A stretch of DNA of 64,000 nt from Actinomycetes bacterium (GTDB taxonomy: Bacteria; Actinomycetota; Acidimicrobiia; Acidimicrobiales; Acidimicrobilacustridaceae), in contig JAKOVR010000093.1 of NCBI GenBank assembly GCA_029782025.1, forward strand, positions 1 to 64,000. Reading direction: 5' to 3'. Within the stretch, counting starts at the first letter, position 1. Every line of letters begins with the position of its first letter. The notes below the pieces were generated by a model. It was given only the letters and a program-made list of their open reading frames with translations, did not search any database and had not been told where the DNA came from. Positions 8,659-17,014 of the stretch are shown in pieces. The position numbers were made by a program, and so were the translations under genes.

Positions 8659-8735
8659 TGGTGGGCGATGAGGGAGTCGAACCCCCGACCCCTTGCGCGT
8701 CATGCAAGTGCTCTAACCAACTGAGCTAATCGCCC
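8659..8735 (-). tRNA. tRNA-Val (GAC)
   Basis: Read on the minus strand, the gene begins GGGCGATTAGCTCAG and ends ATCGCCC, then ACCA, so the 3' CCA is encoded. The anticodon arm is CTTGC, loop ATGACGC, GCAAG, giving anticodon GAC. The T-arm contains GGGGGTTCGACTCCC. A TAGGGT -10 box lies 12 bases upstream (8748-8753 on the minus strand). Confidence 0.93.
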
Positions 8736-14040: not shown

Positions 14041-14115
14041 TGGAGGCCGCGGGCGGAATCGAACCGCCGTACGAGGCTTTGCAGGCCTCTGCCTAAGCCA
14101 CTCGGCCACGCGGCC
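14041..14115 (-). tRNA. tRNA-Cys (GCA)
   Basis: On the minus strand the gene reads GGCCGCGTGGCCGAGTGG at the start and ends CGCGGCC, T, CCA, with the U73 discriminator typical of tRNA-Cys and an encoded CCA. The anticodon arm is GAGGC, CTGCAAA, GCCTC, giving anticodon GCA. The T-arm holds GGCGGTTCGATTCCGCC. Confidence 0.93.
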
Positions 14116-14418: not shown

Positions 14419-14460
14419 ATCGCCGGTGCACGTTCTCGTCCCGACGATTTCGCCGGTGCA
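14419..14460. repeat. Dispersed element, copy 1 (~30-bp internal period)
   Basis: ATCGCCGGTGCA (14419-14430) recurs as TTCGCCGGTGCA (14449-14460), 30 bases apart, with CTCGTCCCGACGA between. The reverse complement aligns closely with 55687-55729, including the internal TCGTCGGG segment. It is in the 182-base gap before the copper lipoprotein gene. Confidence 0.6.
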
Positions 14461-14573
14461 GTTGCACGGCAGGAGACCGGGGAAGCGCGCCGGCGATCGG
14501 GTGGGGTCGAGGAACGACACCAGCGATGGGCGGGCCGGGCCGAACCGACACGGGAACCACACGGGTCCGCCGG

Positions 14574-14579
14574 TAGCAT
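14574..14579 (+). promoter_or_regulatory. -10 hexamer TAGCAT of the copper lipoprotein gene
   Basis: TAGCAT ends 7 bases before the ATG at 14587, predicting a leaderless message. Confidence 0.55.
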
Positions 14580-14586
14580 CGCCGCC

Positions 14587-16437
14587 ATGACAAGGTCCTT
14601 CGGGGGAATCGTCCAACGTCGACGAGGGGCCGCCATCACGTTGGCGGGAGCGCTGCTCGTGGGCGCCGCGGCGTGCAGTGGGTCCACGACCGGCACCGGC
14701 GCCGGCGGGGCGGGCACCGGCGGGACGGGTTCGACGCCGGGATCGAACGGGGTCACCGTCGGCGGCACGGGCAAGGTCGGCGGGCGGACCACCGGCGTCC
14801 ACCTGCCCGTCGATGCGTCGGCGGCCGCCGCCAACCCGCAACGGGAGGACCGCACCGCGACGTCGGCCTGGGCCAACACCGGGCCCGAGGTGCAGCACCT
14901 CCACTTCACGGTCGGCCCGATCGACATCAAGTCCGGCCAGAACAACATCGCCTACACCGGCGCCGACATCCCCCGGCCCGACCGCGACGGGTACATCGTG
15001 GGCATCCACCCCGACCTGAAGTACGCCGACGGTCGCACCCCCGGCGTCGACGACGTGCACCTCCACCACGCCGTGTGGGTCAACCTGAGCGGCAAGGACC
15101 CGACCGCCCCCGGCCTGCCCGAGCGGTTCTTCGCCGCCGGGGAGGAGAAGACGATCATGCGGTCGCCGGCCGGCTACGGGTACCCGTACAAGACCACCGA
15201 CATGTGGCTCCTCAACTACATGATCCACAACCTCTGGCCGGAGCAGAAGCAGGTGTGGGTCGTCTACGACATCGACTTCATCCCCGCCGATGCCGCCTCG
15301 GCCAAGGGGATCAAGGCCGCCCACCCGTTGTGGCTCGACGTCCAGAACGGGAACATCTACCCCGTGTTCGACGCCCTCAAGGGCACCGGCACCGACGGGA
15401 TCTTCACCTTCCCCGACGACAAGCCCGACCCCTACGGCGTGGCCGCGGCCTCGGCCGGCTCGACCACCACCACCGCCGCTGCGGGTGACGGCACCGACAC
15501 CACGCAACGGCGGCGGCGCGGCCCCGGCGGGTATCGCGGGCCGCCGCGCCCGAGTGGCCCGCTCAACGTGTGGACCGTCGACAAGGACATGACCCTCATC
15601 GGCACCGGCGCCCACCTCCACCCCGGCGGGATCTACAGCGATCTGGTCCTGCGCCGGTCCGGCGCCACCGCCGACGCCGCCTCGGGCGCCGCCGCGGTGG
15701 CCGACGGCGACGCGGTGCGGTTGTTCCGCTCCGAGGCCGTCTACTACGAGCCCGCGGGCGCGGTCTCGTGGGATCTGTCGATGACCGCGACCCCGCCCGA
15801 CTGGCGGGTGGGCCTCCGCCAGGGCGACCAGCTCGTCCTCAACGCCACCTACGACGTGAGCAAGGCGTCCTGGTACGAGTCGATGGGCATCATGGTCGCG
15901 TGGGTGTCGGACGAGACGGGCGGGCCCGATCCGTTCGCGGTGCGGGTCGACCGCATCGGCCAGGTCAGCCACGGCCACCTCCCCGAGAACGACAACCACG
16001 GCGGCGACACGTCGGCCGGCAACCGCACCGGCGCCGGGCTGCTCCCCGACATGACCAAGCTCACCCAGACGGTCGACACCGACAAGGTCGACATCAAGGA
16101 CTACGTCTACGCCCCTGGCGACATGGCCAACTACGACGTCGTGCCCCAGGTCAAGCCCGGCGGCAAGCTCCGGTTCAACAACATCGACAGCCCGCTCGAG
16201 AACGGGATCTGGCACACGATCACCGCCTGCAAGGCGCCATGCAACCTGTCGACCGGGATCGCGTACCCGTTGGCCGACGGCGACACCGTGTTCGACTCGG
16301 GGCAGCTCGGCGAGGCCGGCCCGCCGACCGCCGGTCGGACCGACTGGACCGTCCCCACCGACCTCACCCCCGGGCTCTACACCTACTTCTGCCGGGTCCA
16401 TCCCTTCATGCGGGGCGCCTTCAAGGTGGCGCAGTAG
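14587..16437 (+). CDS. Lipoprotein: PHM-like copper monooxygenase fold fused to a cupredoxin
   Basis: The 616-residue protein has a lipobox (LLVGAAAC, C30) and a Gly/Thr-rich linker. Residues about 90-470 resemble the two-domain peptidylglycine/dopamine hydroxylase fold. A His pair lies in HLHHAVWVNL (H160, H161) and a third His in NYMIHN (H214), matching the CuH site. H-x-H lies in TGAHLHPGGIY (H343, H345) and a Met in ESMGIMVAWV (M433), matching the CuM site. A low-complexity insert sits near residues 290-325. The C-terminus is a plastocyanin-like domain with H543 (GIWHTI) and C602-x2-H605-x2-M608 (YFCRVHPFM). Copper-dependent extracytoplasmic oxidation is inferred; the substrate is unknown. 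Confidence 0.7.
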   Translation: MTRSFGGIVQRRRGAAITLAGALLVGAAACSGSTTGTGAGGAGTGGTGSTPGSNGVTVGGTGKVGGRTTGVHLPVDASAAAANPQREDRTATSAWANTGPEVQHLHFTVGPIDIKSGQNNIAYTGADIPRPDRDGYIVGIHPDLKYADGRTPGVDDVHLHHAVWVNLSGKDPTAPGLPERFFAAGEEKTIMRSPAGYGYPYKTTDMWLLNYMIHNLWPEQKQVWVVYDIDFIPADAASAKGIKAAHPLWLDVQNGNIYPVFDALKGTGTDGIFTFPDDKPDPYGVAAASAGSTTTTAAAGDGTDTTQRRRRGPGGYRGPPRPSGPLNVWTVDKDMTLIGTGAHLHPGGIYSDLVLRRSGATADAASGAAAVADGDAVRLFRSEAVYYEPAGAVSWDLSMTATPPDWRVGLRQGDQLVLNATYDVSKASWYESMGIMVAWVSDETGGPDPFAVRVDRIGQVSHGHLPENDNHGGDTSAGNRTGAGLLPDMTKLTQTVDTDKVDIKDYVYAPGDMANYDVVPQVKPGGKLRFNNIDSPLENGIWHTITACKAPCNLSTGIAYPLADGDTVFDSGQLGEAGPPTAGRTDWTVPTDLTPGLYTYFCRVHPFMRGAFKVAQ

Positions 16438-16525
16438 CGGGCGAGGCCGCCCGGTCGCCGCGACGGCCCGCCGCCAGAGCAGGGTCCCCGGGAAGAACGG
16501 GACGCCGACCGGGGTTGGGGCGGGC

Positions 16526-17014
16526 ATGACGACCCTTGTCCAGGAGATCCCCATCCACCGCCTCGACGGCACGCCCACGTCCCTCGCCGACTTCGCCGGC
16601 CAGGTGGTGTTGCTGGTGAACGTCGCCTCGAAGTGCGGCCTCACGCCGCAGTACACGGCGCTCGAGCAGCTGCAGAAGACCTACGGCGACCGCGGGTTCA
16701 CCGTGGTCGGGGTGCCGTGCAACCAGTTCCTCGGCCAAGAGCCCGGGACCCCGGAGGAGATCGCCGAGTTCTGCTCGACCAGCTACGGGGTGACCTTCCC
16801 GCTGCTGGAGAAGATCGAGGTCAACGGTGAGGGTCGCCACGCCCTCTACGCCGAGCTCACCCAGGTGGCCGACGACGGCGGGCACGACGGCGACATCCGC
16901 TGGAACTTCGAGAAGTTCCTCGTGGACCGCGACGGCAACATCGTCGCCCGCTTCGCCCCCACCACCGTGCCCGACGACCCGGCGGTCATCGCCGCCATCG
17001 AGTCCCACCTCTGA
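16526..17014 (+). CDS. Glutathione peroxidase-family thiol peroxidase
   Basis: The 162-residue protein has the catalytic motif LVNVASKCGLT with peroxidatic C37 in place of selenocysteine, GVPCNQFLGQEPGT with the conserved Gln, and RWNFEKFLVD with the conserved Trp-Asn. In bacteria such enzymes generally use thioredoxin rather than glutathione, and actinobacteria usually lack glutathione, so thioredoxin or mycoredoxin is the likely reductant. It reduces H2O2 or lipid peroxides in the cytosol. It follows the copper lipoprotein gene by 88 bases in the same direction and ends just before a 47-bp palindrome. Confidence 0.92.
   Translation: MTTLVQEIPIHRLDGTPTSLADFAGQVVLLVNVASKCGLTPQYTALEQLQKTYGDRGFTVVGVPCNQFLGQEPGTPEEIAEFCSTSYGVTFPLLEKIEVNGEGRHALYAELTQVADDGGHDGDIRWNFEKFLVDRDGNIVARFAPTTVPDDPAVIAAIESHL

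What the first reader, a model, noticed from the sequence alone, without database searches (positions are those of the whole stretch)
14587..16437. Bacterial PHM-like copper monooxygenase fused to a plastocyanin-like domain
The lipoprotein shows ligands matching CuH (H160, H161, H214) and CuM (H343, H345, M433) of peptidylglycine/dopamine hydroxylases. A C-terminal cupredoxin adds H543, C602, H605 and M608. The cupredoxin could deliver electrons to the monooxygenase copper pair in place of ascorbate, giving a self-contained extracytoplasmic oxygenase.
Basis: inference. Interest (0 to 1): 0.65.

Follow-up and report, generated by a model that had tools for sequence, protein, structure and literature searches.

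The report
PHM-fold copper enzyme fused to cupredoxin
This secreted protein of a deep-branching actinobacterium joins a two-copper enzyme core, folded like the animal enzymes that make noradrenaline and amidated peptides, to a small blue-copper electron carrier, and it belongs to a conserved, so far unnamed bacterial family whose nearest shorter relatives match an uncharacterised, copper-regulated plant protein family.

Summary
About 60 relatives, nearly all from Acidimicrobiia and Thermoleophilia, keep both halves, and all ten residues are invariant. AlphaFold models of the window protein and of a relative (47% identical) give PHM/DBH-fold matches for the first half (VIA-align Z 17.4 and 17.1 to human dopamine beta-hydroxylase) and cupredoxin matches for the second (Z 11.1 and 10.6), with an amicyanin-type ligand loop.

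It does not match the Pfam Cu2_monooxygenase families. It lies nearer bacterial SURNod19 (PF07712) proteins, which keep most of the copper motifs without the cupredoxin. Plant Nod19 is a miR398 target of unknown function.

Best mechanism: an extracytoplasmic dicopper C-H oxygenase with a built-in type-1 copper entry for electrons. Hints: YceI genes directly downstream in six relatives, and a YceI-cytochrome c-PHM fusion in the same genome. Substrate, activity and direction of electron flow are inferred. "Self-contained" is too strong, because an upstream electron donor is still needed.

The parts
14587..16437 (+). Whole gene, 616 aa: signal peptide, PHM-fold core, His-rich linker, type-1 cupredoxin
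   Evidence: ORF; single copy in the genome; full-length relatives
14587..14676 (+). Signal peptide with lipobox-like LVGAAAC; C30 as lipidation site (inferred)
   Evidence: sequence; C30 column is Cys in 24 of 32 aligned relatives; N-termini by eye
14878..15444 (+). PHM-fold N-terminal jelly roll (about residues 98-286), carries the proposed CuH site
   Evidence: model and fold match
15058..15069 (+). HLHH motif, H158, H160, H161 (CuH ligands; PHM H107/H108 counterpart)
   Evidence: invariant in relatives
15220..15228 (+). M212-x-H214 (third CuH ligand; PHM H172 counterpart)
   Evidence: invariant; hhalign pairs it with the QxHYH motif of bacterial PHMs
15445..15537 (+). Low-confidence low-complexity insertion (residues 287-317)
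   Evidence: pLDDT under 50 in the model
15559..15915 (+). PHM-fold C-terminal jelly roll (about residues 325-443), carries the proposed CuM site
15613..15621 (+). H343-L-H345 (CuM ligands; PHM H242/H244 counterpart)
   Evidence: invariant in intact relatives; hhalign pairs it with HxH of bacterial PHMs
15883..15885 (+). M433 (CuM Met; PHM M314 counterpart by order and fold)
   Evidence: invariant
15967..16005 (+). Interdomain motif SHGHLPENDNHGG (residues 461-473; family THGHLxENxNHGG); not found in the cupredoxin-less relatives
   Evidence: the short relatives end soon after the CuM Met
16075..16434 (+). C-terminal cupredoxin domain (about residues 497-616)
   Evidence: amicyanin profile hit E 7e-5; fold match Z 11.1
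16213..16215 (+). H543, type-1 copper ligand
   Evidence: invariant
16390..16410 (+). C602-R-V-H605-P-F-M608, type-1 copper ligand loop of amicyanin type
   Evidence: invariant ligands; aligned to the amicyanin C-x2-HPFM loop
16526..17014 (+). Glutathione peroxidase 88 bp downstream, same strand; possible operon partner here, not conserved in relatives
   Evidence: Pfam GSHPx E 1e-38; neighbour table

Best explanation
An extracytoplasmic copper oxygenase with a built-in electron-entry domain. The first part folds like PHM/DBH and holds two separate coppers: CuH (H160, H161, H214, perhaps with H158 or M212 near) and CuM (H343, H345, M433). O2 and an organic substrate with a C-H bond to be hydroxylated would react at CuM. 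The C-terminal type-1 copper (H543, C602, H605, M608) would take electrons one at a time from a cell-surface carrier, possibly a quinol held by a YceI protein or a cytochrome, and pass them to CuH, replacing ascorbate. Shown here: the gene, the conservation, both folds as predicted models, the invariance of all ligand candidates, the fused state across the family. Inferred: copper binding, monooxygenase chemistry, direction of electron flow, the electron source and the substrate class.
For: All ten ligand candidates invariant in ~60 relatives down to 37% identity. The best matches are the closed conformers, in which the two copper sites come together (PMC6123673). Cupredoxin half: 5fc9 Z 11.1, amicyanins Z 9+ and amicyanin profile hit 7e-5. 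Profile-profile alignment with bacterial Cu2_monooxygenases pairs H214 with the PHM H172 motif and H343/H345 with the HxH motif, E 2.8e-4 but probability only 41%. YceI directly downstream (gaps -4 to +10 bp) in six relatives; in three of those genomes it is the only YceI gene. The window's own genome has a 747-aa membrane-anchored YceI - cytochrome c - Cu2_monooxygenase fusion. YceI domains bind ubiquinone-8, and a cytochrome domain from a YceI-containing protein can reduce copper monooxygenases (LPMOs) in vitro (PMC8981238).
Against: No activity or copper binding is shown. Ligand distances could not be measured. Sequence similarity to true PHM/DBH is at the edge of detection, and the conserved cysteines of the Cu2_monooxygenase family are absent from the core. 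The window itself has no YceI neighbour but a glutathione peroxidase, and most relatives have unrelated neighbours. The cupredoxin could also be an electron acceptor.
Confidence: 0.6

Rival explanations
1. Reverse electron flow: the PHM-like centre oxidises a substrate and the type-1 copper carries electrons away to a cytochrome or oxidase, so the protein is a dehydrogenase or oxidase-type respiratory entry rather than a monooxygenase.
For: Amicyanin, one of the nearest cupredoxins, accepts electrons from a dehydrogenase in its own system (general knowledge; 1mda title). Direction cannot be read from sequence.
Against: The CuH/CuM pattern including the CuM Met is that of O2-activating enzymes, and a YceI/cytochrome protein in a known system can feed electrons to copper oxygenases.
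Confidence: 0.15
2. Copper binding or stress protein without catalysis: surface copper buffer, chaperone or sensor using an old PHM-like scaffold.
For: Plant SURNod19 relatives are known through copper and stress regulation (miR398 target, PMC3882225); no substrate is known for any member.
Against: Full retention of two distinct triads plus a type-1 site in every intact relative, and of surrounding residues such as W395, W429, Y386 and Y422, fits catalysis better than storage.
Confidence: 0.15
3. Nitrogen-oxide chemistry: type-1 copper feeding a mononuclear copper site as in copper nitrite reductase, or NO oxidation of the kind suggested for archaeal purple cupredoxin (from memory).
For: Cupredoxin half matches the cupredoxin part of NirK 6hbe (Z 10.6) and purple cupredoxin 5fc9 (Z 11.1).
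Against: The catalytic half has the PHM fold, not the cupredoxin trimer of NirK; there are two proposed copper sites; no denitrification genes were seen among the neighbours annotated.
Confidence: 0.05

Closest known systems
Peptidylglycine alpha-hydroxylating monooxygenase (PHM) and dopamine beta-hydroxylase (DBH), Pfam PF01082/PF03712
   Same: Two-jelly-roll fold, order HH ... H ... HxH ... M of copper ligands, secreted
   Different: No significant Pfam match, no conserved cysteines in the core, MxH instead of QxHY around the third CuH ligand, fused cupredoxin, bacterial lipoprotein or secreted protein
SURNod19 family (PF07712; plant Nod19/MtN19 and short bacterial members such as L068, L069, L070)
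   Same: Homologous core by profile search (41 to 132 bits); HH, HxH and terminal Met motifs shared
   Different: No cupredoxin and no THGHLxENxNHGG linker; the third CuH ligand position varies (MxH, HxH or HxM); the plant function is unknown
Amicyanin and Nitrosopumilus purple cupredoxin (5fc9)
   Same: Cupredoxin fold and, for amicyanin, the short C-x2-H-x2-M ligand loop
   Different: Those are free-standing proteins; here the domain is covalently joined to a PHM-fold core and has an invariant CxxxC pair (C548, C552)
YceI - cytochrome c - Cu2_monooxygenase fusion in the same genome (L085:1959-4202)
   Same: PHM-type oxygenase tied to a redox domain, and a YceI link that is also seen in relatives of the window gene
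   Different: Uses cytochrome c, is a true Cu2_monooxygenase-family member, anchored by an N-terminal membrane segment
Cellvibrio Cbp2D (YceI-like domain + c-type cytochromes; one cytochrome domain donates electrons to LPMOs in vitro)
   Same: Logic of a YceI/redox module feeding a secreted copper monooxygenase
   Different: The oxygenase is an LPMO and a separate protein

Membership tests
PHM/DBH copper type II monooxygenases (PF01082/PF03712) | PHM fold of two tandem jelly rolls | tested here: met
   VIA-align Z 17.4 and 17.1 to DBH, ~17 to closed PHM, two separate models
PHM/DBH copper type II monooxygenases (PF01082/PF03712) | Score above the Pfam gathering threshold | tested here: not met
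   No Pfam family for the window protein; Cu2_monoox_C in 1 of 55 relatives at E 0.11
PHM/DBH copper type II monooxygenases (PF01082/PF03712) | CuH triad of His and CuM His-x-His + Met, in that order | tested here: met
   Sequence order and invariance
PHM/DBH copper type II monooxygenases (PF01082/PF03712) | The triads form two metal sites in space | not testable with these tools
   Model coordinates are not released by the tool
PHM/DBH copper type II monooxygenases (PF01082/PF03712) | Conserved core cysteines (invariant in the bacterial Cu2_monooxygenase alignment A2) | tested here: not met
   A2 has invariant Cys; the window family's only invariant Cys lie in the cupredoxin
PHM/DBH copper type II monooxygenases (PF01082/PF03712) | Copper-, O2- and reductant-dependent hydroxylation | not testable with these tools
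   needs purified protein
SURNod19 (PF07712) | Match to the family profile | tested here: inconclusive
   Window protein: no match; 18 of 55 relatives match at E up to 1, best 5e-4
SURNod19 (PF07712) | Homology to accepted SURNod19-profile members | tested here: met
   A1 profile finds L070, L068, L069 at 132, 79 and 41 bits; those score over the PF07712 cut-off
Type-1 (blue) copper cupredoxins | Cupredoxin fold with His, Cys, His, Met ligands | tested here: met
   Z 11.1 to 5fc9 and 9+ to amicyanins; H543, C602, H605, M608 invariant
Type-1 (blue) copper cupredoxins | Type-1 copper spectrum and redox potential | not testable with these tools
   needs purified protein
Bacterial lipoproteins | Signal peptide ending in a lipobox Cys | tested here: inconclusive
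   LVGAAAC30 by eye, Cys conserved in most Acidimicrobiia relatives; no signal-peptide predictor available

The most novel reading that the evidence does not exclude
A new class of PHM-fold oxygenases that carry their own type-1 copper electron-entry domain and draw electrons from the quinone pool through YceI-type carriers instead of ascorbate. Its core is shared with the plant SURNod19 family, which would make that copper-regulated plant family of unknown function a family of copper monooxygenases.
Probability: 0.35. Interest if true: 0.85.

Novelty: new variant of a known kind. Interest (0 to 1): 0.6.

Why it matters
How PHM-type dicopper enzymes work outside ascorbate-containing secretory vesicles is open, and no fused protein redox partner of this kind is known to me. 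A fused cupredoxin gives a ready-made system in which electron entry, CuH and CuM can be titrated and mutated in one chain. The link between this core and SURNod19 gives a direct, testable proposal for a plant protein family that is cleaved by the copper-regulating microRNA miR398 and has no known function.

Tried and rejected
Pfam, NCBIfam and PHROGs on the window protein: nothing that explains the core (the PHROG tail hit covers only the last 35 residues at E 6e-4 and falls in the cupredoxin, so it was set aside). CuA site: considered because of the CxxxC pair, rejected because C548/C552 are not in the C-x3-C-x3-H-x2-M order (sequence). Conserved operon: rejected in general, neighbours are diverse (SseB, PPK2, GH10, heliorhodopsin, M3 peptidase); only YceI recurs directly downstream in distant branches, and the tree does not exclude a single gain of it. 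Peptide-amidation role: oligopeptide ABC transporter genes lie near some relatives, but ABC genes are common and no lyase partner was seen, so not pursued. Literature searches for PHM with cupredoxin found nothing relevant in the held library, which is not proof of absence.

Full report
OBSERVATION. The signal peptide ends in LVGAAAC30, a lipobox-like sequence. Acidimicrobiia relatives mostly have such a Cys, Thermoleophilia relatives have ordinary secretion signals, so the family is extracytoplasmic (judged by eye). The gene is single-copy in its genome.

FAMILY. A genome-contig scan gave 55 loci from Acidimicrobiia and Thermoleophilia, plus one record among them labelled Promineifilum on a 3.3-kb low-coverage contig, which may be mis-binned. 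Apart from contig-end fragments and one broken copy, every relative contains both the core and the cupredoxin, so the fusion is old. In 396 actinobacterial genomes 30 have a match of some kind; among 40 close relatives only 7 do, so the gene is patchy. All ten named residues are strictly invariant in the 55-row alignment A1, as are H158, M212, C548 and C552. In the larger 62-row set the only exception is a fragment of a frameshifted copy, L035.

FOLD. AlphaFold2 on A1 gave pLDDT 83.3 and pTM 0.85; a model of the Svornostia abyssi relative, with nearly the same alignment, gave 90.5 and 0.88. Foldseek ranks PHM first in both (E 3e-8 and 2e-9). VIA-align gives DBH chain A Z 17.4 (251 residues, 3.2 A) and PHM 6ala Z 16.9 for the window protein, and 17.1 and 17.0 for the relative. 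These two are closed conformers according to PMC6123673, while open PHM structures fit less well (Z about 14, rmsd 5 A or more). The closed preference in both models is an observation about the models, not proof of the working state. The C-terminal domain matches purple cupredoxin 5fc9 (Z 11.1) and amicyanins (Z 9+), and the profile A1 finds amicyanin at E 7e-5. The loop C602-R-V-H605-P-F-M608 has the short amicyanin spacing. The high pTM suggests a defined packing of the two halves, but no coordinates were available, so neither copper-copper nor ligand distances were measured.

MAPPING TO PHM. Sequence similarity to PHM is very weak. hhalign of A1 against 11 bacterial Cu2_monooxygenase sequences (A2) gives E 2.8e-4 with 41% probability; the alignment pairs the H214 motif with the Q-x-H-Y-H motif (PHM H172) and H343-x-H345 with HxH. 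A2 itself finds DBH and PHM in the PDB. M433 is assigned to CuM by order and fold only. The invariant cysteines of A2 have no counterpart in the core. I therefore do not file it as a Cu2_monooxygenase-family member; it works like one, if the fold and ligand order are a guide.

SURNod19 LINK. 18 of 55 relatives weakly match Pfam SURNod19 (best 5e-4). Short bacterial proteins that pass the SURNod19 cut-off (L068, L069, L070) are found by the A1 profile at 79, 41 and 132 bits. They keep HH, HxH and the terminal Met. At the third CuH position they show MxH, HxH or HxM (residues 212 and 214 of the window protein), which suggests that both of these strand-neighbouring positions can face the metal (inference). 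L069 lies in the window's own genome. Two further relatives (L096, L097) carry SLH-like repeats, judged by eye. Plant Nod19 is a validated miR398 target, falls in copper deficiency, rises in copper excess in roots and nodules, and has no known function (PMC3882225). A copper-enzyme role would fit, but no plant sequence was examined here.

ELECTRON SUPPLY. A YceI gene follows the family gene with gaps of -4 to +10 bp in L003, L008, L009, L016, L017 and L025 (YceI by Pfam for L003, the others by clustering with it and by the genome search). In the genomes of L003, L016 and L017 only one YceI gene is found. The tree needs up to three changes for this trait but does not exclude one origin. In the window's genome another gene encodes a membrane segment, YceI, a CxxCH cytochrome and a Cu2_monooxygenase in one 747-aa chain, and other Acidimicrobiia have the same layout. 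YceI-like domains bind polyisoprenoids including ubiquinone-8, and a cytochrome domain of the YceI-containing Cbp2D reduces LPMOs in vitro (PMC8981238; PMC9113575). Taken together this favours a redox module feeding a PHM-type centre, with the cupredoxin taking the place of the cytochrome. The step from quinol to cupredoxin is inference. The linker motif THGHLxENxNHGG between core and cupredoxin (E467 and N468 invariant, H462 nearly so) is absent from the short relatives and may serve the interface or an electron path.

VERDICT. Known kinds are joined in a way I found no record of in the held literature: new variant of a known kind. Confidence about 0.9 for the two folds, 0.8 for three copper sites, 0.6 for an oxygenase fed by the cupredoxin.

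Noticed in passing
L085:1959-4202 (window's own genome, G000:C157 about 14458-16701): 747-aa fusion of a membrane segment, YceI, cytochrome c (CASCH) and Cu2_monooxygenase; similar fusions in several Acidimicrobiia (L076, L078; L080 shows the cytochrome and monooxygenase parts).
   Followed up: partly
L069:1411-2448 (-), G000:C204: The same genome has a separate SURNod19-family protein (51 bits to PF07712) with PHM-like HH, HxM, HxH and Met motifs and no cupredoxin.
   Followed up: partly
L096:757-2400 (-) and L097:1623-3194 (+): SURNod19/PHM-like cores followed by what look like SLH (S-layer homology) repeats, suggesting surface-anchored versions; judged by eye.
   Followed up: no
window 16526-17014 (+): Glutathione peroxidase 88 bp downstream of the oxygenase gene on the same strand; this neighbour is not conserved in relatives.
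   Followed up: partly
L019:7380-8123 (+): A heliorhodopsin gene (Pfam E 1e-99) starts at the stop codon of the oxygenase-cupredoxin gene; heliorhodopsins have been linked to light-induced oxidative stress (PMC8612252).
   Followed up: partly
L039, L046, L047, L048, L052: Tandem pairs of the oxygenase-cupredoxin gene in Solirubrobacterales.
   Followed up: no
L100:694-1734 (-): 346-aa lipoprotein-like protein with two cupredoxin-like repeats and no PHM core, in a relative of the window's order.
   Followed up: no
window 14041-14115 (-) and 8659-8735 (-): tRNA-Cys (gca) and tRNA-Val (gac) genes, the former about 470 bp upstream of the oxygenase gene.
   Followed up: no
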